The notes below the pieces were generated by a model. That model saw nothing but the letters and a program-made list of their open reading frames with translations. It was not told the DNA's origin and did no database searches. 64,000 bases of DNA, taken from positions 175,973 to 239,972 of the forward strand of contig JAQGBZ010000061.1 in NCBI GenBank assembly GCA_034687125.1, in the 5' to 3' direction. The translations under genes were made by a program, and so were the position numbers. Positions 15,501 through 63,863 of this stretch are shown piece by piece. Position 1 is the stretch's first letter; each line of letters starts with the position of its first letter. The stretch comes from Neelides folsomi. Lineage: Eukaryota; Arthropoda; Collembola; Neelipleona; Neelidae.

Positions 15501-17906
15501 TTTATCTAATTTGTAAAATATTCAACGACAAGTATATCCGCATTTAAGTATGTAATTAAAAGAATATTTCACATCCTTTCAATCCTCCACTTGATTTATT
15601 TAGAGTGGTAAAAGTTGCCAAATATTCCCGCCTACTCAAATAACTTCGTTTAATGAAGAGTTTCACACTTGAGTGAAAGCGAAGAGCATTTAACTACAAT
15701 TCCTTCCAAGAAGTTATAAAGTGCATTTTAATTAAAGAGCTTCTCTCTTAGACGACTCTCATAATTTGCCATCCAGAAGCTTCTTGAATGCGCTCGTGAG
15801 TTCCCTCATACATTTTGAAGGAGCGCAATGTTTGGGAAATCTAATTTGCCATCTTTAAAGACCACCCCTGCCCCATTCATCTCTTCCGATTACATTATTG
15901 AATGGAGGAATTGAAAGAAGAACATAATTACGAGGAAGCAGTCCACATAATCATACACATTGCAAAATGACTGGTGACTAGGTAGTGATTTATCTTTTAA
16001 TTCTAATCTTTTGACCATTATTTCCCATGGCGGAAAGATAAAAATTATATCAAATGATCGGCATCAATTAATTATATGGACGTTAAATAATAATTATTGG
16101 CACCAAAGAGTAACCTGAAATTTAACTAATTCCTCGCACATCCAATAGCTCACGTAATAGGAGCCGACAGTTCATGAGAGATGATTTGAATTACGAATTC
16201 GCGAGTCTGTTCACACACGAAGAGGTTCGCGAGTCGGGAGATTGGGATCATTTACCTAACACGATGAGCCTTTACAGGTTCATTTCAAAAGGTGTGGAGA
16301 ATGATGGAATTGGGAAGACGGCGATCTAATGGTCTTCCACTCGGAGGGGATCCGTCGTGACAAATGAGTTTTAGTGGAAAGGGATGAAATTGAAAGGGTG
16401 TCAGTGACTGATTCACTTGTTCAGTACGACAAGCATGAGGGTTAATGGGGATCCATGTGGGTGCAATAATTGAGCAAATCTTGGTGGCTAAGAGAGGTAG
16501 GGAGGAGGGCGTAACGTGATGAGGCTGATGAGCACCTCTTTCCACATCTCATATTTACCCATTATGTGGCGTAGACATAGGGCCGGAAAGGAGTATTTGA
16601 GAGGGCCATTTTAATTAAAATTCACCCATTAACTTTATTTGTCAATCTCTGCATATTTGAGTACTCTCGCCTCAAGGAGGCTTCTTCTTCTTTCAGCCTC
16701 GATTGCACGAGAACTCGCCTTTATGAATTATTAAAAAAATTGAGCAGCTCGAGCCGATCCCTACTTTCTATCACTTTGATGTGCAAAGGCGTTGTTTGTG
16801 AAAATGGGCCTCGGTATGGAGGAACGAGGAAGAAGACGATCGGAGATGGGGGTTGCAAACGGCCTCCGAGAACACACCGGAGAAGAACAAACTCAATGGG
16901 GTAGGTGTGGGTTATGAGCCACACCGACTCCCTGACAAGTCACGATCTCACAAGGCCTTAATTGGCATATGAAAGAGACGATGAGGAATTTGGGATCGCA
17001 AATTCTACCAGCATCATCAACACACTGGTTTTCAAACAAGCTAAATACAGTTGAATTGAGAAGAAGAACAATGGGCCCGTGTGTGCATTATGCAACACTT
17101 TATATAAACTCATTTTATGAATTATTTTCATATTGTTAGCTTGCGTGCTAAAGATATTTGCATTCATCACCGATTGCATATATCCACTTCATTGACCATT
17201 TACGTATTTACATATAAATGTTATACGATCTTATAAGATAATTAATAAAAATACTTGCTGACTTTTTATGAAATGGCAAATTACTGATAGTAATATAAGT
17301 ATTTTTTATTAAATTGAAAGATTTTTTATACCTTATTATCTTATTATGTTCACTAATGTTTCTTCATTCATTAATTTCTTTTAGTCCGGCCACCACGACA
17401 GTGACCACCACGAGCCAGGTATGCCATACGACTTCTCCTATGCCGTTAAGGACGACAATGGAAACGACTTCTCCCATATGGCTGAGAGCGACGGAGATGT
17501 TGTGAAGGGAGAATACAGAACTCTCCTTCCCGATGGCCGTCTCCAAATCGTCAAGTACACCGCCGATTGGAAGAACGGATACAATGCCGAAGTGACTTAT
17601 GAAGGAGAAGCTAAATACCCAGAGCCAGAAGAGAAGCCAGCCGCTGCTCCAGCCCCAGCCAGAACCCCAGCCCCATCCAGACAACCACAACCAACCCAAC
17701 GACCATCCAACAACTTCCGACCAGAATCCGAGACCGACATCGACTCCCAAGGATTGTCCCCATCTCGCCCACAACAACCACCCAGACAACAACGACCACA
17801 ACAACAACCAACTCAACGACCCCAAGCACCAGGAGGTCTCTACGGAGCCCCAGAAGTTCCCTTTGGAGTGAGGATGAACCCGAAGTTCGGCTACACAAGG
17901 AAATAA
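12540..17906 (+). CDS. RR-family (pro-resilin-like) cuticle protein, gene 1
   Basis: Secreted chitin-binding exoskeleton protein. Three phase-0 exons join to 250 aa: 12540-12557 (MNIFYK), 13177-13389 and 17385-17906 (stop TAA). The start follows a good TATA/Inr, and a six-codon first exon is typical of cuticle genes. The joined N-terminus has a hydrophobic core (TLASAILLAAVASA) with likely cleavage after residue 20. A Pro-rich linker precedes a His/Asp patch at about 78-89. The chitin_bind_4 domain covers about 91-151, with GNDFSHMAE, DGDVVKGEYR, LLPDGRLQIVKY and NGYNAEVTYEG. The tail (152-250) is Pro/Gln-rich. Unlike genes 2 and 3, its whole RR domain lies in one exon. The 'DGD..GEY..LLPDGR' form resembles pro-resilin-type RR domains. 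Splice sites were placed by eye but all are GT-AG and close in frame. Family certain, exact subtype less so. Confidence 0.9.
13390..17384 (+). other. 3995-nt second intron of cuticle gene 1
   Basis: The intron starts GTGAGT and ends TTTCTTTTAG. It is much larger than any other intron in the window. Its interior (roughly 13.6-17.1 kb) appears less AT-rich than the intergenic DNA. It contains several short open frames without recognisable domains, such as 16285-16545 on minus. Enhancers are plausible here but unproven. Confidence 0.75.
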
Positions 17907-29955: not shown

Positions 29956-32900
29956 ATGGTAGAAAGGGTGAGTGGGCCAAATTCACTTCACTCTTCCTTT
30001 TACCCAATTATTCTTTCCATCTTCTTTTCGAATGACCGGATGAAATAAACACTGGTTGCGGAAAGATGCCTGATTCTTTAACTTATTACTGCCCTTTATG
30101 GATTGAGAGTTTACTGGGTTAACCTCAACCCTTCTTCATATTCAATCCCACCTTTTGCCTTAATTACCCTACAGACTTGAAAGTTTCCAACCTCGTCAAG
30201 ATTCAATTCCCTTTGTTATCTCAATTCTCTCTAAATTTGTTGATTCATGCACGTTTTGACCGTTTTGTTCGATGCACAACACGTCCATTAACCCATCTTT
30301 AATCAGTTAATCTTGGCTGTTTTCTCTGTTCTGTCCGCTTCGATAACTTTTCCTTAGTTATTAAATAAATATTTTTATTTCCTTTTTCTTTAAAGAAGTA
30401 AAACCTCTCTTGGTCTTTTTGTCATTTTAAACACTGACTTTGTATTGTTTGTACCTGTATTAGTAAAAAAGTGAAGAAATTAGTTAATTATTCTTAAAAT
30501 TTTCTTTGTTATACTTTGTTAGAATTTTGAAAGATACCTATAGAGTAATAGAGTATGTAAGCATTTATAGATTAATGTATGTATAGGTTAAGTTAGGGAG
30601 CATCAATCTAGGTATATTGTACTGTTGAATTCAAATATTTACAGACATTTTAAATGTTTCCAATTCAGGTTCTTGCCCTTATCTTCCTTGGTGCTTGTGC
30701 GTTGGAGTCTAGTCATTTTGCAGAAGCAAAAGCACCAGTTCAAAGGCTTCTGCTCAGATCCGGGAGTTTACGAGGAGATGAAATTTACGCTCCAGGGGGG
30801 AACATTTACATCAATGGGAAAGGACAAATCGTAACTCCGATTTACAAAGAATCTCAACCGAGGCATTACGAAAATCACCAAAACTCTGGACATGACCATC
30901 AGAGTTCTTCTTCACATTTTGCGCCGTCGAATGAAGCCACTGCTGATTACCCGCAACCGGTAATTTTATCATTCAATTTTCTATTTCAGTTTATCAACAT
31001 GATTTAATTACCAAAAGTGTTAAGATTTAAATTTATTTTTAATTATTTATAACCCATGATTTTGTTTAGGATCCGAAAAACTATGCGTTTGCTTATGCTG
31101 TTAGAGATGGACAAAGAGAAGGAGGAGATGACTTTTCTCATAAAGAAAGCAGAGATGGAAAAGTAACAATGGGAGAATACAAAGTAAGGAATTGGAAATT
31201 AGGGAATTATTTACATGAATACTTAACATACATGAGACGCTACACCCTACAGATCTAAATTTTTATGAAACATTATTGTTAACAATATAAAATAAATTAT
31301 TTTTATTATTCAGGTTCTGCTTCCTGATGGAAGAACTCAAGTACGGAAAAATTTTGCCTAATTAATTTTTGAAACAAATGCGCTCACAACATATATTTTA
31401 CACCTTTATTTCTTCATTTGTAATATTTATCATAGACAAAATACTAATAAATACAAAATCAATAGGTGGTGAGATACACAGCAGATTCCAAAGCTGGATT
31501 TAAAGCCGACGTGACTTACGAAGGAGATCCAAACGACAATTCGCATCTGGCCAAATTGGATAGCCAGAACATTCCCAAGAACCATGCGTCCCCCAAATAC
31601 CCACCTCTGTACAGAACAGAATCAACGTCTTCTGTATTTAAGAAATTTGCAGCTCCACCGAATCCTTCATCTCATCCTGAAATTTATCAAGTTTCGCCCA
31701 CTCCATCACAAAGTGGCAGGAAACCATCAACTATTTACTTGTCTCATCCTCTCAAGTCACATCCAAGCATCTCTCCATCACTCTACTACAAAGAAGATAT
31801 CGAGCACCACCACCATCATCGTCATCCCCATCACCGGTACAATGAAGTTCTGGCTTCGCCATCTCCCACATTCCTCTACAAAGTGAGTCCGAGTCAGGAA
31901 ACTCCAAGACATTCGCCTTCTCCTCGAGGAAGACTGATAAGAGTTCAAAAAATCGGTTCCATTTCTCCCTCGCGGATTCCAATCGGTTACCGGACTGTTC
32001 CATCACCATCTCCAACAACAGCAATCTACTCGCCCTCTCCTTCACCAAACTCAATTTACAGAATAGGCGTTTCTCCCACGCCGACTTACGACTCCTCTCC
32101 GGCTTACTCTTCAAATCAAAAGCCAGCCCGACCGCATAGAATTGTATTCCAACATATTTCTCCATCTCATCCGGCCCATCCGGCTCCAGACGTCGGGAGA
32201 TATCCAGGAAATGCCATTGAGCAACAGGACCCATTCAAACCAGGAACTAAAAGTCGATTGGTCCCTATCGAGTTTTTTAAAGCGGGCCCGGCCACAAAGA
32301 GCACAGGAGATTACAAAGCGTCTGCTTCCGCCTCTCCGGCTCCAAACTATGAGACACTTGAGGGAGACTATCATGTTGAAATTCCTCGTCGTGGAACTCC
32401 TATCAAATCATCTGTTGCAACTTACACCTCATCGGTTCTTTATCCAAGCCCATCGTCCAAACCAACAATTTATATTAAATCAAATCCTCATCACCACCAT
32501 CATCATCATTCACATCACCATCATGAAAATCAGCGTCAGAATCCTTCTCAACAACAAGATCATTATCAAAATCCTCCTCCGCAAAATCATTATCAAAATC
32601 ATCCTCAGCAAGATCATTATCAAAATTCTCTTCAACAGAATGTTTATCAAAATGCTCCTTCTCAACAAATTTATCAAAATGCTCCACCTCAACAAAACCA
32701 TTATCAAAATCCACCACACCACCACCACCACCACCACAATAATCCAATTCCGCATCATTCTCACGGTAGGAGACGTCCATCAGGACAATCAGGAGGACTT
32801 GTCTATTTGGAAACTCCTGCCAAAGGACCCAGACCATCCGAACTCGGGGTGCAGGAAATCCTCTCAAGACTCCCAACAAACGTCAATGTTCCCCCACCCA

Positions 32901-33199
32901 AGACAACAACTCATCCTTATGAAGTTGGAGCTTCTGATTATGGAAAAAGCGTTTCTTATTCTACAGATGATAAGAAAAGGAGTTTTAACAACAATGGACA
33001 GGGAATTCCTCCTGAATTCGTTTCTGCTCATGTTGAAGGTGGCCCGAGATTCGCGCGCCCATATAGCAGAGGTTATCTCATAGATGACTCGGAAGACGCT
33101 ATTGTGCAAGGGCCTCAAGAGAGAGCTGACTCTTCGTATCAGCACCAACAGCAACAACATGAACAAACGGGGCAGTACAACGAAGAAGGCTTTCATTAA
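29956..33199 (+). CDS. RR-family cuticle protein with His/Gln-rich tail, gene 2
   Basis: Secreted cuticle protein of about 725 aa from five phase-0 exons: 29956-29967, 30669-30959, 31070-31183, 31314-31340 and 31466-33199. Exon 1 (MVER) has a strong CCGCCATGG start context and a GTGAGT donor. An in-frame ATG at 29929 would add nine residues. A third possibility is an unspliced start at 30654 (MFPIQ), which also gives a signal peptide. After the signal (VLALIFLGACAL) and a linker, the RR domain spans about 102-170: YAFAYAVRDG, DDFSHKESRDGKV, the 27-nt exon VLLPDGRTQ, then VVRYTADSKAGFKADVTYEG. The long tail carries SPSP/SPTP-Tyr motifs, His runs (near 31807, 32490 and 32710) and six YQN-centred units at 32560-32712. 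Such tails suggest metal-binding or tyrosine cross-linking, which is inference. Exons 2-5 are firm; exon 1 is less so. Confidence 0.85.
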
Positions 33200-46743: not shown

Positions 46744-49700
46744 TCAGTAATAAAACTCTTCTTCAAACCAACTTCCTTTGTTTTTTCGAATGATGAGCCT
46801 CCGGAGCTCATCGTAGAAGAAAATGAAGAATGAGAATGGAAGGGCAGGGAGCCACCATTCAAACCTATTCAATTTGTGGTCAAGCGGTGAGTATAATTAT
46901 ATAAAATAGTTTCCTTCTTCAGCTAATCTTTGTTTACTTACTTGAGTGGCATCATTTTTAAAGCTACGTCCATTCCTGGTGTGTAGCACAGGAAGCAAGC
47001 GAGAGCCGTTTCAAAGACCAAGGCAAAGTTCAGCACCCAATTACTAAAAGATGAAATCGCCAGATAAGACTCATTCTCTTCCAACTTATATCATTATTAA
47101 TCCCTTTTTACACCTTGCTTCCTTTTGGATTTGAGGTGTGGGGAGGGCTCATAAAATAATAAACGATTTTTATGATCCACGTGTATTTTTCCATTATGGC
47201 CATTAACTGGGGTTTGATTAAATGCGCACAATTAGGAAATACACGGGGTCCTGACAGTTCGTATAATGGGAAATCCACCTATTTACATTTTACACAATTC
47301 AACCTTATGGGTGTTTTAGACCCTCACGTGTTCCTACGTTCATTGAATGTAATGAGCAGCGTCGTCAGTGAGGCGTGAAAAAAATCATGCAGAATGCATA
47401 ACTTGAAAAACGAGTGTTCCGACCAAGAAAAAAGGATGTAGTGGAGAGAGATAAGAGTGTCAAAATGTCTCACTTCATTCCTTTTTCAAAGATCGAGACT
47501 CGGCGGGTCTTGGAGATGAGGAGGTTGGCCCACTGAGTGATCACGATGGAACAGAAGTAGGCAGTTGAACACGTATTCTCAAGCCGTTTCCTCTGCTCGT
47601 ACGTCTGAGGGTTGTCAATTAAAAGAGGGATTAACTCGAGAACGTAATTGGCCTCCACTTAATGCGAGGAGAGTGAAAAAAAACTTAAGGTGTTTGAATT
47701 CTGTAATTAGCCTCATCAGACCCACCCATTCCTGGCCGTAAGAGTCTTCGAGGTCGTTTCGAGCCTCCGAGTCCCATTCCGCCCTAAGTCCTAACAGCCG
47801 CATCGGGAGGAAGCCCTGCTCCGCCATTATGACGATCTTGAGATATTAAAAAACTTATTTAATTCCACCAGGACTTACTTAATAACCTCTATAATTTATA
47901 ATCCAACTTACATAAGTGAAAAATGCTCCAAATGACTCAATTACTCCGATCTGCCCATAAGCGTATGAAATGAGTCTGCAAGAGCCAAATGAGAATTACG
48001 AACCTCAACATGAATAATGGTGGTAATAACCTAAATATTTACCTTTGTTTCCCTCTCTCTGAATTTACGAGCCCACTTAATCTAATAACGAGGGTTTAAA
48101 AGAATATAATTTACTCTTTCGTAACTAGCTTGTCTTTAATTGGGTCCCGAGGCTTCCTTTGCATGATGTCGGATTCTCCTTTTTCGTATGCCAAAGAAAT
48201 GGCCGGCACGACGTCACTCCCCAAGTCAATACACAAAATACTGATTGTCCCCAGTGGAAGAGGAATTTTGATGAGGATGAAGAGGAGAAACGGCGTTAGC
48301 TCTGGATTTAAAAGAACCAATTTTCAAAATTAAAGGTTCTCAAATCCTAAATACAGCTCATGTGGTTCATTGATCCATTAAGAGTACATTAAATGCTTTT
48401 AACGACTCAGATTTACAACTCTCACCAGTGATGTTATCCGTGAGAGTGTAAAAAACACATTTTTTGAGATTGTCAAAAATGAGTCGTCCCTCTTCAACTC
48501 CCGTCACAATGGAAGCAAAGTTGTCATCAAGTAATATCATGTCGGCGGCTTCTTTAGACACATCGGATCCAGAGATTCCCATTGCAATCCCTGTAGGAAA
48601 CAGATGGTTAAAATGGTGTGGGAAAGACAATGGGAAAGAACCTATGTCTGCTTTTTTGAGTGCTGGAGAATCATTGACGCCATCGCCAGTCACAGCCACA
48701 ATTTGGCCCAATCTTTGACATCCTTCTACTATTATGAGTTTCTGTTGTGGAGATGTTCTGGCAAACACAATTTCGTCGTGATATCTAAATCCGAATAATA
48801 AAAAGTTATTTAATTTTAAGATCAACTATAATTAATAGAACAAATAATAGATATGCAAGGCCATGGACTTATTATTTTGTATGTACAGTTTTGTAGGTAA
48901 ACTATGATAGAGAATAGAAATTGACAAAGAATTTCATCGAGTTTTAATAGATTCATTAATTTAGATATATTTTATAATGGATGAGAAAAGGAGATATTGT
49001 GTAACTACTTAAAGGTATTACTTATTTAATCTATAGTTAATTGAAAACTTTAAATCTTACTAATTAGCCATTATTTAAGAGTACAGTACCTAACAAAGGA
49101 AATTAAAACCCGATTCATCTTTTACCTTAAAATATTATCCAATTCATAAGGTTCCATTTTTTTCAGTTCGTTCCCATGAATGACAATCGCTTTAACTTGA
49201 GAAGGCTCAACGTCAACAATGGATATATTTAGTCTTCGAGCGATTTCCTCTGAGGTTTCACACCCTTGTTCCAAATCGATAATCAGCCATTGTTTCTCAG
49301 AATATATAATAGTATTTAACTAAATGAATCAATTTTATAAATGTGTCACCTTGAGAAATAATTCCAACAGCCCTTGCGATTGCCTTTGCAGTGACAGGAT
49401 GATCACCAGTGACCATAATTACTTTGATTCCAGCAGATCTACATTTCGCGACGGCTTCAGGAACGGCGGCTCTTGGTGGATCAATCAATGACATGAGACC
49501 CACAAATCTGAGCCCTTCACCGAGAAAATCAAGATTTTCTTGATCAAATGCGTGCCCTATGGGAAATTTATCCAGTGGTAATCTTGCATCACAAAATCCC
49601 AAGACTCGTTCACCCATTTCAGCTAAATTCGTGTAGGTTCTTTCAAAAGCCTCAGCTCGGTTTGCATCAATATTTACATCACTTCCATTCAAGTACATTT

Positions 49701-52620
49701 TTGTGCAATGCTCAAACAATCTTTCAGGAGCTCCCTAATACCAAACAAAAAAGTTCGATAATAATTAACGCTACATTATTTATTAACTACAAATACTTTT
49801 AATATTCTAAAGCATTATTTCTACATAACACTGGCTTTTCATCTCAAGATTTACCTTCATAACAAGGAGGTATCGCGGATCATTTGGATCCTTCATATCA
49901 TGAATGGAAACTTGAAACTTATTAGTAGAGTTGAATGGAATTTCAAAGATCTTTTCGTGTTTGGATCTATAGCTCTCAACATTTCCCAAATGGATCTCCA
50001 TACATTTGAGTATAGCCGACTCTGACGCATCTCCTATGACTTCCCTACATTTTATTAAAGACGGAATTAAAGTATTTAAATTAAACTAATCCCGGTGTCA
50101 TTGATTAAGTCGGTTAATGAATTAAAACATGTGACCATATTATGTATGTGTCAATGTCTTCACCTTGCCATAATCTTAATATTGGACTGAAAGGGCTTAA
50201 ACTTTGCTCGGCCACACAACGCCGCGACCCTGGCGAGGGCTTGGAAGCCTGGTGATAATTCTTTCCCTACTTTCCTTCTCTGCTCCTCGTCTGTGTCAAT
50301 GGTCCAAATGTCATTGTCGTACCACATGTGAGCCACGGCCATTTTATTCTGTGTGAGGGTTCCAGTCTTGTCGGAACAAATGGTTGTGGTGGAGCCGAGG
50401 GTCTCGACAGCCTCGAGATTTTTGACGAGGCAGTTCTTCTGTGCCATCCTTTTTGCAGTCAGAGCGAGGCAAACTGTGACTGTAGCCAGCAGACCTTGAG
50501 AAAAATAATAGCTCTTCAATTATCCACACGCCGTCTCATGAGGGAGATGAAGAAGACGCGAAGATGCTAATTAATTGAGCATGTATATTACCTTCCGGTA
50601 CGTTCGCCACAATGATTCCAATGAGCTACAAGTGAATCAAAAAGCATCTTAAAAAATTATCAAATCGTTTCTTGCATAAATTAGTGAGCATTCCTTTTTA
50701 TTACATGCATGCATACATGTAAGGTAAACACTGGTTTGTTTACTCAAAGTGTTGGTATTTCAATTAACATTTTTACAGTGTCAGGAGTGAGAAGAGGAAA
50801 GTGTGTAAAACGTACAAATATTGCACTGTCAAACCACGAATACCCCATCCCGACAGATATGAGGAAGAAGACAGCTCCGAAGAAGACAGCGACAGACGAG
50901 ACGAGTTTGATAAAGTGTTCCATTTCCTTTGCAATCGGAGTCATCCCTGCTTCGAGTCCGGAAGCAAGACCGGCAATCTTTCCCATTAGAGTATTGTCTC
51001 CAATTCCGACGACGATTCCTTTCGCTGTGCCTGCCCCAACAAATCAATTTGTCACAGCGAATGGCCCTTCCTTATCCTGCTTTCAATTACCTTCAATGGC
51101 GTTGGTGGAGAAAAAAGCCAGATTTTTCGTTTCCATCGGGTTCTCGTGCGTGTATTCGACTCCCCGCGACTTGAGGACACACATGAAGAGTTAATCGTAT
51201 TTCTTAATTTATAATTTTTCTTACTTGTGGCTCAGATTCGCCTGTTAAGCACGAGTTGTCCACCTGTGAAATCAATAAATGAGATTGTTTTCTCTCTTAC
51301 TTTAATAACATGTAATACATGTTATACCAAACTAATGAGTGCGTACATTATGTGCAGCGAATAGAATAACTACTGATATTTAGTATTGATACATGCACAT
51401 GTGTATATTAAATAAAGAGGTTAGATTACCTTAAGGCCAGAGCATTCAACTATTCTGAGATCGGCGGGAATTCTATCACCAAATGTTACTTCGACCAAAT
51501 CCCCCATTACAAGATTAGATGCATTGATCGTAACTTGTCTCTGGTCCCTCCAAACTGTTGCAAAATGCGGCACAAGTCTCTTGAATGATTCCATGATCTT
51601 TGAACTTTTTGCTTCTTGGTAGTAAGAGAAATACCCTGAAATATTGTTAGCAAATACAAGGATTAGAATAATGCAGATTAGTTGTTCAAAGCTTTTCAAG
51701 TTTGGAAATTATCATTTAAAAAGTGATTGAAGCTCAATTTACCAGTTATGAGAACAACAGCAGCAAGTACAAACCCCAAATATAGCTAAAAAATATGGTA
51801 TAAATTGTATAATGAATTTTATTTTTAGTAATTTTATGTGCTCACATAATCTCCAGGTACATCGTGTGATTTTGCATGTTGAGCTCCATAAGCTATGAAG
51901 CACAAAAACGCACCGGCCCACATTAAAAGTGAAAATCCACCAAGAAGATGCTTAGCGAATTTTTTCCATTCTGGGATTTTTTTCGGAGGAGTTAGAACGT
52001 TTGATCCAAATCTCCTCAAATTAAGCATGGCTTGATAATCAGACATTCCCTATATGAAACAAGACTAAATTGTTTTATTCCCTTTTGCAAGAACGAGAGT
52101 ACAAGGATTTACAAAGATCAACTTATTTAAGAAATGCTAACTCTCATTTGTTTATCAATATTAATACATAATTAATTTAAGCTTACTGAATTGGAGTTTG
52201 TCTTCAATTTCCTGCATAATTCGTCTATAGGAATTCTATGCCAATCAATTTCGATTTCTTTCTTCAATTGAGACAAACTTCCATTGTCAAAGTCAACCTT
52301 TAAATAATAATAGGACACTTAAATGTTATTATAGTAAAAATAATGTACATTACAAACTTTAAACTTTACCCCAGAAAGCCCAGAATCAAAAGCCGGATTT
52401 TCATAGCCACTTTTATTGCTCTTGTTACTAACATAAGAACCACTTCTAGTAAACGTCCCCTGTAAAATTAAACAGTTAAATTAATAAAAATTTAAAAGTA
52501 ATTGAAACATTACTGAAAAGACTTTACATTTCTATTGTTATTGGGACATCCAGAGAAATCACCAATGCTGTGATAAGAACTGATTGTTAAACTGCTATGC
52601 AAAAGACTTTTCTTCGCCAT
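46744..52620 (-). CDS. Na+/K+-ATPase alpha-subunit paralog, copy A
   Basis: P2C P-type cation pump of the plasma membrane; 22 exons give 1060 aa. Exons (plus coordinates, 5' to 3'): 52528-52620, 52370-52459, 52187-52297, 51846-52049, 51743-51785, 51430-51635, 51225-51263, 51091-51169, 50816-51030, 50592-50625, 50164-50494, 49855-50044, 49350-49734, 49126-49264, 48642-48784, 48426-48590, 48115-48301, 47912-47975, 47726-47836, 47474-47604, 46942-47043, 46744-46864. Motifs: TGES 256-259, PEGL 370-373, DKTGT at D413, GAPER 546, TGDGVND 752-758 and a terminal FYY. The first 61 residues are Ser/Asn-rich and unlike canonical alpha. Cation-site oddities: D819 where canonical TLTSN has Ser, N970 in QWAN where canonical has QWAD, and Y166 where cardenolide-sensitive pumps have Asn. 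It is paralogous to copies B and C. The fold is intact, so an active pump is likely, but its ion stoichiometry is uncertain. Confidence 0.93.
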
Positions 52621-54319
52621 ATTTCTATATAAGAAGTTAATAAGTAATACTAAAAATTAATAAAAATATTGTCAACTATACACATAAAATATGATGGGAA
52701 AAAGAATCATATTTGTATTTGATTGATCATTGAACAAATAGTTGAAACAACAAATTAATTTGTAAGTAAAATAGAAATTATAGAAATATACACATTAGTT
52801 CGTCAAAATTAAATGAAAATAATATTTGTATACAATCTACTAACTAAGAATAAAGTAAAATTATCTTATATTGCTTTTAATCAGGAGGTCCAACAACTGT
52901 CACGAATGAACAGATATTTAAAACTAAGACTTCTGATGGCGATTGGAGTCTTTATAAGTATTGGACATTTAATCATAACCCATAAGTCAACTGAACAAAC
53001 AATAACATGTTCATACTTGTTTGTTTTATACATAATATGTATTTAATATCCTTCTTTGATAATCTCACAAGGATGAGGAAAAAGTCTGAACGCACACGTG
53101 GAATGCAATTTGACTAACTAAAGATTGTCGGATTAGATTTTTTAGCTTTGAAGGTACATATCTTGTAATGTCTGTAAATGACATGTTGCCTCAATTCACA
53201 ATATTTCAATTATTACGATATATATAATTTAATGGTTTAAAACTATATACAGTTATCAACCAAGACTTACCCTAATGGATGTAAATCCCATACAGGGTAT
53301 ACGAAAACTGTATTTTATTATGTAACAACCAATTGTATGTAGGTATTACAAATATACTTATTATATCTGTAGATCTGTGAATTTACAACCTGCTTATGAC
53401 GTGAAAATAAATTAACATGTGGACCTTGCACGCATTTAATATGTGTATGACAATATGATCTCTTAAAATAGTGTAAACCTTAGAAGGCAATCCATTTTAA
53501 AAGACTTTATCCTCATTTAACCAATTAATATCGATATTCGCGACAAATGAAAGATTAAATATTATTATTCTCCCTTGAAAATAGATTTAAAAATAATCTT
53601 ATATGCATATCAAAGGTAGCTTATAAAACTGTAACTATATTATACGCTAATTGTTATAAGTAGTGTCTATAGACAATTTTTAAGATCTGCCTTAATACAT
53701 AATTACATAAAATTCTACTGTAATTTATAAGAACATAAATGATTTTTATTATACACGAGTATAATCAACGAAACACTCCATTAAGCCAGCTTTAAGTTCG
53801 TGTCCCTCTTCACATTATTATCCAACTTATTGTTAATAAATATTAAATAGTATGTTTACTTTGATAATCATCGAACTTTGTAACTTTGAGATCTATTCTG
53901 ATTATAATTATTATTTCATAGCTATAATTTATTATTTAAGATTTCATTACTTTTTAGTAAGTACTAGTAATAAGTATCCTATTTTGAAAGATCAAGAGAC
54001 AAAGAGAGATATAGGATTGGAAACTATGTATAACTCGGGTTCATATACTAAATCCTAATTAAGATTATAATATATTTTTAGAACAGAGAAGTTAAAAGTA
54101 TGTTGATCCTACCACAAATATCGCATGGTTTCATCACTCCCTTCCAGACGATGTTTACCTGATTAATCTGGCAGCTAGAACCGCTTCCCAGCAGTTGTAA
54201 GTTCCTTCCTCTGACTTCAGCACGTCATCAGCAACTTTTAAACTCTAAGAATTTGATGTCAATATTCGGGGACTTTAATGCCAATTAAAGCTACAGTTTC
54301 TTATAAAAACAGGTAAGAC
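52621..54319. other. intergenic region between ATPase copies A and B
   Basis: This 1.7-kb AT-rich spacer lies upstream of copy A and downstream of copy B, and must hold the copy A promoter if copy A is independently transcribed. I cannot pick out a convincing TATA/Inr pair on minus. Short plus-strand frames at 52813-53046 and 53852-54058 have no recognisable content. Confidence 0.5.
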
Positions 54320-54325
54320 TTTATT
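54320..54325 (-). terminator. candidate polyadenylation signal, ATPase copy B
   Basis: TTTATT on the plus strand reads AATAAA on minus, 81 nt past the stop codon of copy B. Confidence 0.5.
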
Positions 54326-54406
54326 ATTCGAACATGCAATATTCTCAACTTTTTTGTTTTTCCTATTTGTTTTCAATATTATTAGCCTAATATTAAAATT
54401 GGAGTG

Positions 54407-57400
54407 TCAATAATAAAACTCTTCTTCAACCCATCCGCCTTTGTAATTTCTTATAATGTACCGTCGACATTCATCATAGACAAAGATGAGAATTGAAAAT
54501 GGAATTGCAGGAAACCACCAGTCCAATCTAAAACGACATTAGTGGATAATAAGCATTAAATCTTTTTTTCCTCACATGTATTGCATATAAGATTCCCAAA
54601 TTCATATAGTTAAGTATTATTTGTATTTACTGATATTATTGTAAGAGTAAATAAGGATAAGAAGGTATGACGTACTTTAACGGGAGCATTTTAAGGGCAG
54701 CTTCCATCCCAGGAGTATAAGAAAGGAACGCCGCAAGAGCAGTTTCAAAAATAATTGCAAAGTGTAATGCCCAATTGCTGTTATTTCATAAAAAATTTCT
54801 ATTTATTTAGTATGGGAGTGAATGGTTTATTTATGCTAAAATGATTGATCCTTTAATATGAAACTCTCTAAATTCACTCACTTCATTCCTTTTTGGAAAA
54901 TTGATACTCTCCGAGTTTTGCATATGATTAAGTTGGCGTATTGGACGACAACGACAGCAACGAAATAACCAGTCCAGCATGTGTATTCAAGTCTTTTACG
55001 ATTGTGATATGTCTAAAATAAAAAAATTATTGAATTTAAATTGAAGTTGCTCCAAATGTGTTAAAGTTAAAAATTGTACAATTGTTGTTTTTAAACACTT
55101 GCCCATTCTTGTCCATAGGAATCTTCAAGATCGTTAACTGCTTGTGAATCCCATTGAGGTAAAATGCCGTAAAGCCGATTTAGTAAAAACCCATTTTGAC
55201 CCATAATAACGATGTATGCGAACATCCCACCACATGCTTCCATAAATCCAATTTGTCCATATGAGTATGAAATCAATCTAAAAAATAAATATACGAGTAA
55301 ATCCAAATGAATGATTCATCTATGAGAATAAATAAACCAGAAGTGAGATCTCACTTGTTTGTGACTAAACGGTCCTTTTTAGAATTTCTTGGTACTTGTT
55401 TCATAATGTCAATTTCGGGACTTTCGTAAGCTAAAGATATGGCAGGAATTACATCCGTCCCAAGATCAATCATCTACGATTACATAGATTTCAAATTTAA
55501 AAACATTAATTTCACTCCTAACATATTAATTTATATAATTTTAAATTACAAAAACATTGTGATATTATGAATAGTTTTAAGCAATTGCACGACAGTTTTA
55601 TTACATTGTGTTAGTAAGGAAGAGCAATGCACACAATTAATTTAACTTACTTACCAGCATTGCAACTGTTCCGAGCTGTAAAAATATAATGACATTTTAC
55701 AATTTACTATTTTAGGATCATACAACAAATTAATTATTGAATATTTTTGCTAAATGTAAGAAAAATTACCGGTAAGGGTATCTTGAAAATAACGAAAATC
55801 ATAAACGGAACCAATTCTGCAATACTGTTTAATGCAAAAGTGCTTAGCATTCAATTAAATTCGTTAATCAAAAGAGTTATTACTTGTCTGTTAAGGCGTA
55901 AAATGAACATTTCTTCAAATTATCAAATATGAGCCGTCCTTCTTCCACACCTGTGACAATTGAAGCAAAATTGTCATCAAGAAGAATCATATCCGCTGTT
56001 TCCTTTGACACGTCAGACCCTGAGATTCCCATTGAAATTCCAATATCTGCCATTTTCAATGCAGGGGAATCATTTACCTTGATAAAAAAATATAAGTTAA
56101 ATAATAATTTTAGTTCTAATAAATAATTTACCAATCAAAATATTGGAAGTGATAGTATGTACTCTAAATAGGTAGTCTTGAATATATTTTATACATTTTA
56201 TAGAGATTTACTTACTCCATCACCAGTAACAGCAACCACATGTCCAATTCTTTGAAGAGCTTCAACAATAATGAGCTTTTGCTGAGGTGAAGTTCGCGCA
56301 AAAACAATTTCTGGATGACCCCTAATAAAATTCAAACCTTTAAATCCGGATTAATACAAAATGACTTCTCCCAATTTAAAAAGCTTACAACAATATTTGA
56401 TCCAAATCATCTTGATCCATAAGTTTCAAATCATTTCCAGTTATCACCGTAGCTTTAATTGTTGAAGGATCAACGTCAGATATTGAAATATTTAAACGCT
56501 TAGCCATTTCCTCTTTAGTTTCGTTTCCTAAAACATTTGTTAACGTTTATTTCTATGTACCTATACCTTAGAATGGTGTACTAATTGCATCTACTATCAT
56601 CTAACCGTATAAGGTATTCTATTTACATGTATTTCACAGGACTCTGCATAATTACCATAAGTAAACACTATAGTCATATTAATGGCTAATTACCGGCTGA
56701 GAAAATTCCCACGGATCGAGCAATAGCTTTTGCCGTGATAGGATGATCACCAGTCACCATAATTACTTTGATCCCCGCTGTACGACATTTGAGAACGGCA
56801 TCTGGAACTGCTGCTCTTGGTGGATCTATCATTGACATAAATCCGATGAATCTCAAGCCAGTTAAAGGAAAGTTTTTTGATTCTTCGTCAAATGGATATC
56901 CTGATGGGTATTTGTCAATTGGGAGAATCAAGTCGCAAAAACCTTTAATAGAAAAATTAATCTAATCCTTAATGGTTTCATTTTTGCATTTTTTCTTGTT
57001 CATTCTCATATGATTCGTATCTCTCATGTGAATTTTGGAGAATTACCAAGAACGCGCTCTCCAAGTCCAGCTAAAGATTCGGAGACACTTTCAGCAATTT
57101 CTCTCCACTCTTCATTGAGTTCATATTCAACGTCATTAATAAGGATAGTTGAGCAGCATTCTAAAATTTTCTCTGGAGCTCCCTATTTTTATTACAAATA
57201 TTAATTGATCCTTGATCCTAGAATCTATTCAGATTATAAATAATAACATGTTATGTTTATACCTTCATTACGAGCAAGTTTGAGTACTCAGATTCGTGAA
57301 TGGAAATTTGATATTTATTAGTCGAATTAAAGGGAATTTCAAACATTTTCTTGTAGCATCTCCTATACTCTTCAACATTTCCATATTGAGATTCCATGCA

Positions 57401-59912
57401 TTTGAGAATGGCAGTTTCAGAAGCGTCACCATTTACTTTTCTGTATAAGTTAAAATTAGAATTGTTTTAATTCCAGGTGTCCATATTAGTATTAATGAAT
57501 TTTGGTGTTAATGTTTTAAACCTCTTTGAGATCATAACATCTTCTTGCCCAACCATAAATGTGGCACGGTTACATAACATTCCTACTCTGGCCAGTGCGT
57601 TAAATCCAAGATCATGAAGACTAATTTTAGATCCACTTTGATTCTCTGTTGTGTCAGCTTTCACTATGCAATTACCGAACCAAAAATGCGAAATGGCCAT
57701 TTTGTTTTGAGTTAAAGTTCCAGTTTTGTCAGAACAAATTGTTGTTGTTGATCCAAGTGTTTCAACTGCCTATGTTAAAATAATCATTCAATATTCAATT
57801 GACAACATTTGAGCTAAATTAATGCTTATACTTATGATTTTGAAAAATGCTTTTATATGACTCACTTGTAAGTGTTTGACAAGACAATTCTTCGATGCCA
57901 TTCTCTTAGCTGTTAAGGCAAGAAGCACCGTCACAAAGGACAACTAACAAACAAAATATTATAAATAGAGTCGATTTTCATCGAAATTCGTTTTTACTAA
58001 TCCTTCTGGAACATTCGCCACGATGACCCCAATGAGCTAAATAAACCAAATTAAAAAGAATTTTTCAATTGGTTAATGAAAATATTTATAATGTTAACAT
58101 CTCTAATATTTGAATAACATAAAGAGTATGTTTATATTTACAAAGAAGGTCGAGTCGAACCAGGAATATCCCATTAACATTGAAACTACGAAAAAAATGA
58201 TGCCGAAGACAAGAGCACGACCTCCCAAGATTTTGACAAAATAGTTGACTTCTTTTGAAAGCGGTGTTTCCCTATCTTCGAGTCCAGATGTGAGACCGGC
58301 AATTTTCCCCATAAGAGTACTGTCGCCAACTCTTAAAACAACAGCCTTAGCCGTTCCTAATGAAGAATTAACAATTTAGATTGAATCGCACTTTAATAGA
58401 TATTTAATAGTGGTCAAACCTTCAATTGCGCTAGTTGAAAAAAATGCCAAATTCTTTGTCTCAAGCGGATTTTCATCGGTGCAGATTACAAGACGTGATT
58501 GTGGCTCCGATTCTCCAGTCAATGAGGAATTGTCGACCTTATTAAGAAGAGTGATTTGTTAATCAATCCTTATAATTTTATGGATTTACACACTGCATAT
58601 GATTGGATGAGTACTCTGCTCTTTACCTTAAATCCATTAGATTCGATAATTCGAACATCTCCACAAATTTTATCCCCGTATTTGAACTCGACGATATCAC
58701 CAACAACCACTTCTTTGACATTTACATTAACTAAATGAATAAAAATAGTCTAATTATAAGCTTTGACTATGTGCTTTTAACACCATTTTAGAGAAAATAA
58801 TTAGAGGAAAATGATGTTAATTTAAATTGAGTTTACCCTTTTCTCCATTTCGAATTATAATGGAATATTGAGGAATCATATTTTTAAAAGAATCCATAAT
58901 TCGATCACTGTTGTACTCTTGAATGAAGGTGAAAATGGCAGTGAGAAATACAACAGCGATAAGAGCAACTCCAAGGTACAACTGAAATACAAAACGGACA
59001 GTCAAAATTTGGTTTCTTGTTTGAGATTTGTGTTTGGGGTAAACATATTTTATACAGCAAAAATATTGTAAATAATTAAATTCGATAGAAGTGAACTAAC
59101 AAAATCTGATGGTGGGCCTTCCGTCTGAACCCATTGAGTGATATAAACCATAAAACATAAAATAGAAGCAATCCAAAGTAAAATGGCGAATCCTCCAACA
59201 AGTGTTCTGAGAAATTTGAGCCATTGAGGAGTCTTTTTCAAGGGAGTCAAAACATTCATTCCGAATCTTGCCAAATTGATCTTCACTTGATCGTCCGTAA
59301 GTCCCTAACAAAGAAAAACGATTTATTAGCTCCATGTTGTATCTGTAGTAAGGCTAGTGATGTCAATTATAAGATGGGGAAATCACACCAATTTCAGAAT
59401 ATAGTGAGTATAATACAAAAGGTATAATTTGAGTAAAGAGGAATTAATTCAAACCAGTGTTGGATTAGTTTTGAATCTTCTGTAAAGATCATCTAATGGG
59501 ACCTTATGATCGTCGGTTACAAGTTCATTTTTATCTTCCATTAACTCCTTCTTCTTTCGATATTTTTTTTTCTTGAGCTCGAAAACTTCATTATCGCCAA
59601 GTTCAACATTCGTCAGCTTTTTACAAGAAAAAACAAGATGGCATTTGTATTTACAAAATTACATCGATTATATTTTATTTTTAATAAAATAACGACTATA
59701 AAAACGTTCCAAACCTCATAGCCATTATTGTCGTAGCCGACCATTTCTCGTTGATTTCCATTTTGGGGCTTTCCCTAATCATACGAGGGAATATATTTAC
59801 AAACATATATCTATGTACTGTTTGTATGTATTTGTATTTACTCGAGTACATTATGTAAATATGCAGTATTTACTAAAACATATTAAATGATTTTACTCAC
59901 CTTATTCACCAT
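54407..59912 (-). CDS. Na+/K+-ATPase alpha-subunit paralog, copy B
   Basis: P2C cation pump; 24 exons give 1036 aa. Exons (5' to 3'): 59901-59912, 59715-59774, 59455-59616, 59101-59304, 58837-58981, 58627-58730, 58420-58537, 58142-58356, 57998-58036, 57866-57943, 57522-57769, 57263-57440, 57047-57182, 56694-56942, 56389-56527, 56216-56321, 55884-56077, 55770-55824, 55655-55675, 55355-55473, 55103-55277, 54882-55012, 54676-54777, 54407-54527. Start MVNK is a 12-nt exon. Motifs: TGES 236-239, PEGL 350-353, D393 in DKTGT, GAPEK 522, TGDGVND 728-734 and a terminal FYY. It shares the copy A changes (D795 for the M5 Ser, N946 for the M8 Asp) and has F146 at the Asn122-equivalent. FIQEYNSD replaces the usual SYYQESKS after M2. 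Intron 21 needs a GC donor. A and B share several intron positions, so they arose by duplication followed by divergence. Confidence 0.93.
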
Positions 59913-63410: not shown

Positions 63411-63863
63411 CAATAATAGGTTTCTCTTTCAATCCAACCTTCTGGATGTCTTCGAAGTAAGAAACGTCGCCCCTCATCATATAAAAAGATCAAAAATGAA
63501 AAAGGAAGAGCACAAAACCACCAGGTAATTCTGAAAAGAACAATTGTATTAGATAGAATTTTTACGAGAATTTATACGTATAATATACGAGGTTCTTTTC
63601 TCACTTGGCCCTATTAAAGCCTTAATAATATGTATAGTACATTTAAAGATTAGTGAATCATAAATATTAAGTTGATACTATTGATTAACTAATCTGTACT
63701 TGGTAAATAAAATTAATAATTTTGATAAGATAAAATAATCGTATTTTATAGTAAAACTCACTTAAGGGGATAAAGACGGAGACCCTCATTAAGGATTGGC
63801 ACGTAACAAAGAAGGATAGCAAGAAAGGTTTCGAACGCAAGTCCAAAATTAAGAACCCAATTT
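63411..63863 (-). CDS. Na+/K+-ATPase alpha-subunit paralog, copy C (last two exons)
   Basis: Only the C-terminus lies in the window; the rest is beyond the right edge. Exons 63762-63863 and 63411-63530 join in frame. The first encodes [20 protein letters not shown] (M9 region) through to YPLK. The second encodes [19 protein letters not shown] (M10), a basic RRFLLRR segment, then the terminal ERETYY and a stop. Intron positions and phases equal those of the last two exons of copies A and B, so it is a third tandem member in the same orientation. Its TYY ending matches the canonical KETYY terminus, whereas A and B end FYY. The M5 and M8 ion-site residues are not visible here. The upstream intron starts at 63864 and nothing else is recognisable to 64000. 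Confidence 0.9.

What the first reader, a model, noticed from the sequence alone, without database searches (positions are those of the whole stretch)
46744..59912. Ion-site rewiring: M5 Ser to Asp and M8 Asp to Asn in both copies A and B
Canonical alpha has YTLTSNIPE in M5 and QWAD in M8. Copy A has YTLTDNITE (D819) and QWAN (N970); copy B has YALTDNIAE (D795) and QYAN (N946). In pig numbering these are Ser775, a K+-coordinating residue, and Asp926 of Na+ site III. The conserved M5 proline is also lost. The other ligands (Glu327, Asn776, Glu779, Asp804, Asp808, Gln923, Glu954 equivalents) are kept. An acid appears lost at site III and gained at the site I/II region, suggesting changed stoichiometry, electrogenicity or ion selectivity. 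H,K-ATPases have Lys at the Ser775 position; Asp is not a form I know.
Basis: partly seen in the sequence, partly recalled or inferred. Interest (0 to 1): 0.8.

Follow-up and report, generated by a model that had tools for sequence, protein, structure and literature searches.

The report
Sodium pumps with rearranged ion sites
Two neighbouring genes of a small-genome arthropod encode sodium-pump relatives in which the acidic residues that hold the transported ions sit in new places, so these pumps may handle sodium and potassium differently from ours; no transport has been measured.

Summary
Genes A (52620-46744, minus) and B (59912-54407, minus) are intact Na,K-ATPase alpha genes with Asp at pig position 775 and Asn at 926, without alignment shift. 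Residue 854 lies at Na+ site IIIb beside 926, so site III does not simply lose its acid: acid and amide trade places (854E/926N), and Asp775 adds an acid at the site I/III border. A, B and the unlinked gene on C38 share all three changes. The C251 gene, probably a third tandem copy and perhaps broken in M8, has 854E and Ala775. These four form a clade apart from the NAK1-like gene C501. Synonymous sites are near saturation while protein identity is held. Most likely A and B are working P2C pumps with a rebuilt Na+ site III and an altered K+ site I; whether stoichiometry changes is unknown. C501 itself carries N776K and N324W, recalling brine shrimp alpha2KK. No expression or transport data exist, no other arthropod genome could be surveyed, and the copepod label is doubtful.

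The parts
46744..52620 (-). gene A, Na,K-ATPase-type alpha subunit, 22 exons, 1060 aa (first exon inferred from an ATG and a splice donor)
   Evidence: TIGR01106 1664 bits against cut-off 946
54407..59912 (-). gene B, Na,K-ATPase-type alpha subunit, 24 exons, 1036 aa, one GC-AG intron (first 4-codon exon inferred)
   Evidence: TIGR01106 matched by all 5 aligned members (bits printed for A only)
48436..48438 (-). A codon 819, GAT, Asp at pig 775 (M5)
47936..47938 (-).
47524..47526 (-). A codon 970, AAC, Asn at pig 926 (M8)
55886..55888 (-). B codon 795, GAC, Asp at pig 775 (M5)
55238..55240 (-). B codon 874, GAA, Glu at pig 854 (M7)
54932..54934 (-). B codon 946, AAC, Asn at pig 926 (M8)
63413..63862 (-). 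last two exons of a third tandem alpha gene at the contig end (63862-63762 and 63530-63413); its 5' part is probably on contig C251
   Evidence: the link C61/C251 is inferred, no overlap found

Best explanation
A and B are two members of an old clade of Na,K-ATPase alpha paralogs whose cation pocket has been rebuilt. Shown from sequence: the catalytic motifs are intact; Asp926 (M8) is Asn; Gln854 (M7) is Glu; Ser775 (M5) is Asp; the M5 proline 778 is gone; the ligands 327, 776, 779, 804, 808, 923 and 954 are kept in A and B. Inferred: Glu854 takes over the carboxylate role of Asp926 at Na+ site III, while Asp775 adds a carboxylate between sites III and I and replaces the Ser775 hydroxyl that holds K+ at site I in E2. 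The protein should still be phosphorylated from ATP on binding Na+ and move cations by the P2C cycle. Na+ binding at site III should be kept or retuned, K+ binding at site I changed, and the proton acceptor of the C-terminal pathway moved. Whether the net stoichiometry stays 3Na:2K or falls cannot be read from sequence.
For: Intact ORFs and splice sites in both genes. TGES, CSDKTGT, KGAPE, DPPR, TGDHP and TGDGVND present in all five own-genome alphas. Purifying selection: 52-63% protein identity within the clade although fourfold third bases are near saturation, 0.29-0.42 identical against 0.26-0.30 expected. Of 443 columns invariant on the NAK1 side, 7 are uniformly switched in the clade; two of these are site III residues, 854 (Q to E) and 926 (D to N), hypergeometric P 0.007, chosen after seeing the data; at 926 the C251 gene is missing. 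A, B and C38 also share S775D. Clade split 100/100 in an 8-sequence tree; one intron position (column 422, phase 2) is shared by A, B, C251 and C38 but not C501. Site roles: PMC4914835 (section 6), PMC5026471 (passages), PMC10812997 (passages, abstract), PMC9463140 (sections 7, 8 part 1, 9 part 1).
Against: No expression, transport or structure data. Two clade relatives also lost Asp804 (C251: Cys, C38: Val), so part of the clade has lost a K+ ligand. The C251 gene has 854E without Asp775, and its reading frame runs into a stop in M8, so the three changes are not strictly linked and that copy may be broken. D926N alone cuts Na+ affinity more than 100-fold in human alpha3 (PMC9463140) and mutation at the 854 equivalent (Q858N) causes leak (PMC4914835), so the compensation is assumed, not shown; another passage calls the role of Asp926 'relatively minor' (PMC5233988). 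One intron position (column 708, phase 1) is shared by A and C501 only. The P values are post hoc.
Confidence: 0.5

Rival explanations
1. Site III is truly disabled. The pumps carry two Na+ out per cycle, either electroneutrally (2Na:2K, as in the NKA C930R mutant) or with fewer K+.
For: [quoted passage not shown] PMC10812997). P778 is Ala in the electroneutral non-gastric H,K-ATPase.
Against: Glu854 is at site IIIb in all four clade genes, and Gln923 and Glu954 are kept in A, B and C38, so the site keeps an acid; Trp924, reported as needed to form site III, is kept in A (Tyr in B, Val in C38).
Confidence: 0.22
2. The pumps move another cation set, for example H+ for K+ or with extra proton coupling, because the pocket of A and B holds seven acids instead of six.
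For: [quoted passage not shown] K794E is electrogenic to a lesser extent than K794A; PMC9463140); protonation of Asp926 by the C-terminal pathway is part of the models.
Against: H,K-ATPases use Lys at 775 and Arg at 930; A and B have Asp and Ser/Cys. No direct evidence for H+ or divalent transport.
Confidence: 0.13
3. The proteins no longer pump and act in junctions or signalling, as claimed for nematode CATP-1.
For: Fast divergence, and loss of Asp804 in two of the four clade genes. The CATP-1 precedent is known here only from a title in the reference list of PMC11631496.
Against: The phosphorylation and dephosphorylation motifs are kept under purifying selection, and A and B keep Asp804, Asp808, Glu779 and Glu327.
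Confidence: 0.12
4. Artefact: misassembly, sequencing error, alignment shift or pseudogenes.
For: The assembly looks incomplete (no locus that I could recognise as SERCA in three Pfam searches), and the neighbouring third copy is cut by a contig end.
Against: Different codons at 775 and 854 in two diverged copies (GAT/GAC; GAG/GAA), the same residues in unlinked C38, intact ORFs, gap-free alignment, near-saturated synonymous sites.
Confidence: 0.03

Closest known systems
Canonical Na,K-ATPase alpha subunit (P2C; bovine alpha1 PDB 4xe5, human alpha3 PDB 8d3u)
   Same: Whole-length homology (A 64-67% identical, B 61-64%), same catalytic motifs, C-terminal YY, ligands 327, 776, 779, 804, 808, 923, 954
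   Different: 775 Ser to Asp, 854 Gln to Glu, 926 Asp to Asn, 778 Pro to Thr/Ala
Brine shrimp Na,K-ATPase alpha2KK (PDB 8k1l)
   Same: Natural arthropod alpha paralog with altered ion ligands; 2Na:1K stoichiometry reported (PMC10812997, passage)
   Different: alpha2KK has Lys at 324 and 776 and keeps 775, 854 and 926; A and B are the reverse. The C501 gene of this genome (K776, W324) is closer to it
Non-gastric and gastric H,K-ATPase
   Same: Change at the 775 position; Ala at 778 in the non-gastric form as in B; Asp926 neutralised (there by Arg930, here replaced by Asn)
   Different: Lys not Asp at 775; no Arg at 930 (Ser in A, Cys in B)
Arthropod NAK2 alpha paralogs (barnacle Nak2 and others; PMC3793950, passages)
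   Same: Divergent, faster-evolving alpha genes beside NAK1 in arthropods
   Different: Cannot be compared: no NAK2 sequence was available; barnacle NAK2 has two exons, A and B have 22 and 24
Human ATP1A3 D923N (disease allele at pig 926; PMC9463140)
   Same: Same Asp to Asn change
   Different: Deleterious alone there; here fixed with Glu854 and Asp775 in three of the four genes of a conserved paralog clade, 926 of the fourth unread

Membership tests
Na,K/H,K-ATPase alpha subunit (P2C, TIGR01106) | Model score above the curated cut-off | tested here: met
   A 1664.2 bits against 946.1; all 5 alignment members match the model, but bits were printed for A only
Na,K/H,K-ATPase alpha subunit (P2C, TIGR01106) | Catalytic motifs TGES, CSDKTGT, KGAPE, DPPR, TGDHP, TGDGVND | tested here: met
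   Present in A, B, C251, C38 and C501
Na,K/H,K-ATPase alpha subunit (P2C, TIGR01106) | Assembly with a beta subunit | not testable with these tools
   Beta-subunit matches lie on four contigs, C31, C469, C19, C204; pairing unknown
Canonical 3Na:2K Na,K-ATPase | Ligand set including Ser775, Gln854, Asp926 | tested here: not met
   D/E/N in A, B and C38; A/E/unread in C251
Canonical 3Na:2K Na,K-ATPase | Stoichiometry and electrogenicity | not testable with these tools
   Needs expression
H,K-ATPase | Lys at the 775 position and Arg at the 930 position | tested here: not met
   A: Asp and Ser; B: Asp and Cys
Artemia alpha2KK type | Lys at 324 and 776 | tested here: not met
   A and B have Asn and Asn; C501 has Trp and Lys
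Arthropod NAK2 class | Groups with NAK2 sequences in a tree | tested here: inconclusive
   A, B, C251, C38 split from C501, Artemia and vertebrates at 100/100; no NAK2 reference sequence to place them with

The most novel reading that the evidence does not exclude
A natural reciprocal exchange of carboxylate and amide inside the Na+-specific site III (Gln854/Asp926 to Glu854/Asn926), joined by a new carboxylate at 775, defines a class of animal P2C pumps with its own cation stoichiometry or proton coupling. In this animal it works beside an alpha2KK-like N776K/N324W pump, so that none of the five alpha genes found in the assembly keeps the textbook ion site.
Probability: 0.25. Interest if true: 0.85.

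Novelty: new variant of a known kind. Interest (0 to 1): 0.6.

Why it matters
What is known here about how the Na,K pump selects three Na+ and two K+ comes largely from single mutations that damage it. A natural pump class that carries the disease change D926N together with what looks like a built-in compensation at the neighbouring site III residue would give a direct test of what site III needs and of how stoichiometry evolves. It also warns that a change at one ligand column should be read with the whole pocket.

Tried and rejected
Alignment shift: rejected. Pseudogenes, for A and B: rejected. Recent duplication or gene conversion as the cause of the shared residues of A and B: unlikely, fourfold sites are near saturation between them, 82 of 258 identical. 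H,K-ATPase membership: rejected. The idea that Asp at 312 (rat E314, where second-site mutation rescues D928 mutants; seen only as a title in the reference list of PMC6746705) is part of this clade's compensation: weakened, because C501 has Asp there too. 'No canonical alpha in this animal': not claimed. The pattern search would miss a copy with an intron inside the stretch, as B has one, and the assembly seems incomplete: no locus that I could recognise as SERCA (translations judged by eye; one weak locus, L042, not identified; that tool scores only its best candidates); the direct search TIGR01116 did not complete. Copepod orthologs could not be surveyed: no eukaryote collection is on hand, and the passages seen in PMC9644288, PMC12639140, PMC13317510 and PMC10654040 gave no residue table. 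The original papers on alpha2KK, E314 rescue and D923N are not held. The viral scan gave two distant ATPases, 31-32% identical.
Full report
What was checked. Both genes were spliced by hand from the minus strand. A runs 52620-46744, 22 exons, 1060 aa; B runs 59912-54407, 24 exons, 1036 aa. Introns are GT-AG except one GC-AG in B, and there is no internal stop; the first exon of each is inferred. The codons at pig position 775 are GAT (48438-48436, A) and GAC (55888-55886, B); at 926 they are AAC in both (47526-47524; 54934-54932). Against solved alpha1 and alpha3 chains A aligns without gaps through M5 to M8 (five alignments printed of 139 matched sequences). A scores 1664 bits with TIGR01106, cut-off 946.

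The rest of the family in this genome. The window lies at the end of contig C61 of a 75.1 Mb, 840-contig assembly. Searches with Pfam models and with 610 residues of bovine alpha1 gave these alpha loci: A and B; the last two exons of a third tandem copy at 63862-63413; contig C251; C501; and C38. The C251 model stops at the start of M8, and the roughly 318 bases left before the contig end run into a stop codon; it is probably the 5' part of the third tandem copy, though no overlap was found, and it may be broken or have another intron there. In the alignment C251 reads Ala775, Val778, Cys804 and Glu854, with 926 not read. C38 reads Asp775, Ala778, Val804, Glu854 and Asn926. C501 is the NAK1-like gene: canonical at 775, 854 and 926, but Lys at 776 (AAA) and Trp at 324 (TGG). 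A DNA pattern for the canonical YTLTSNIPE stretch, one mismatch allowed, matches once in the genome, at C501, with the Lys codon.

The missed third change. I compared A, B, C251 and C38 with C501, bovine alpha1, human alpha3 and Artemia alpha2KK. Columns with at least three sequences on each side were used (707), which leaves out most of the first 300 residues because the alpha3 and Artemia copies start near residue 300. 443 of 707 were invariant on the second side. In 7 of 443 the four genes share one other residue: T338A, R378K, D636E, V725I, N839T, Q854E and D926N (C251 missing at 926). In 19 more all are changed but not alike, among them 775 (D, D, A, D) and 778 (T, A, V, A). A review of the crystal structures lists human alpha2 Thr778, Gln858, Gln927 and Asp930 around Na+ site IIIb (PMC4914835, section 6 read). 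With its Ser779, Asn780, Pro782 and Asp808 equal to pig 775, 776, 778 and 804, the offset is 4, so Gln858 is pig 854. Two of the seven uniform switches thus fall among nine site III residues that I listed (771, 774, 775, 807, 808, 854, 923, 926, 954); hypergeometric P 0.007, and 0.012 for three of the 26 changed columns. These tests were framed after seeing the data. The DFT paper's own list of pocket residues does not contain 854 (PMC5233988, passages), so its part in Na+ binding rests on the review.

Age and constraint. A, B, C251 and C38 separate from the other four sequences with support 100/100; the order inside the clade is weak, 61.5-78. An intron at alignment column 422, phase 2, is shared by these four and absent from C501; two more are shared by A, B and C251 only; against this, one (column 708, phase 1) is shared by A and C501 only. 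Over the ten pairs of own-genome paralogs, fourfold third-base identity is 0.29-0.42, expected 0.26-0.30, while protein identity is 50-63%. The shared residues are therefore old, and the proteins have been held by selection.

How rare is Asp775. In 82 relatives (80 prokaryotic, 2 from viral contigs) the 775 column has S 34, T 22, C 21, A 4, G 1 and no acid. By their other residues these are mostly Ca2+-pump-like (my inference), they are the best 80 of at least 595 confirmed stretches, and their 926 column aligns poorly (20 of 82 unread), so nothing is claimed there. A mutagenesis study of rat Ser777 (pig 775) tested G, T, N, Q, V, L and Y, not D (PMC10812997, passages). [quoted passage not shown]

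Mechanism. Ser775 holds K+ at site I in E2 (PMC5026471, table) and is a shared ligand of Na+ sites I and III (PMC10812997). Asn for Asp926 alone costs more than 100-fold in Na+ affinity in human alpha3, and Arg at 930, which neutralises Asp926, makes the pump electroneutral (PMC9463140, section 9 part 1); one passage calls the role of Asp926 relatively minor (PMC5233988). If A and B had only D926N, loss of site III would be the natural reading. The Glu at 854 changes that: site III keeps one carboxylate, moved from M8 to M7, and Asp775 adds another at the I/III border. A and B thus carry seven acids (327, 775, 779, 804, 808, 854, 954) where the canonical pump has six (residues; the six listed). 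I commit to a working pump with a rebuilt site III and a changed K+ site I (0.5). Loss of site III with 2Na (0.22), other cations (0.13) and a non-pumping role (0.12) remain. C251 and C38 lack Asp804 and may differ from A and B.

Taxon. The 15,157-base mitochondrial contig has nad2-cox1-cox2-atp6-cox3-nad3 on one strand, nad5-nad4-nad4L and nad1 on the other, cob and nad6 with the first (genes named by eye). From memory this is the common arthropod order, and sequenced copepods are rearranged. A cuticle protein with Chitin_bind_4 fits an arthropod.

Relation to print. In the ten paper searches (open-licence PMC only; listings, and passages or sections of some papers) I saw no natural 854E/926N or 775D pump; this is weak evidence of novelty. 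Several divergent alpha genes are known in barnacles, Daphnia and insects (PMC3793950, passages), and this clade may belong to the NAK2 class described there.

Noticed in passing
L019 (contig C501:6777-12148, +, N-terminus not modelled): The only NAK1-like alpha found in the assembly has Lys at 776 and Trp at 324, recalling the two-lysine brine shrimp alpha2KK pump; it may also run at reduced stoichiometry.
   Followed up: partly
L020 (contig C38, +) and L018 (contig C251, -): Two further paralogs of the clade lack Asp804 (Val and Cys), yet keep the catalytic motifs; C251 runs into a stop in M8 near the contig end.
   Followed up: partly
63413-63862: 3' end of a third tandem alpha gene at the contig end; its M8 region is not assembled in readable form.
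   Followed up: partly
contig C742 (L022, L023): Mitochondrial contig with what I recall as the common arthropod gene order, which by memory does not fit a copepod.
   Followed up: partly
whole assembly: No locus that I could recognise as SERCA or SPCA appeared in three Pfam searches that found a PMCA-like gene and flippase-like loci (named by eye), so the assembly is probably incomplete.
   Followed up: partly
contigs C31, C469, C19, C204: Na,K-ATPase beta-subunit matches on four contigs.
   Followed up: no
17385-17906 (+): Cuticle protein with a Chitin_bind_4 domain.
   Followed up: no
31466-33199 (+): Long open frame rich in His, Pro, Ser and Gln with no Pfam match at E 0.01.
   Followed up: no
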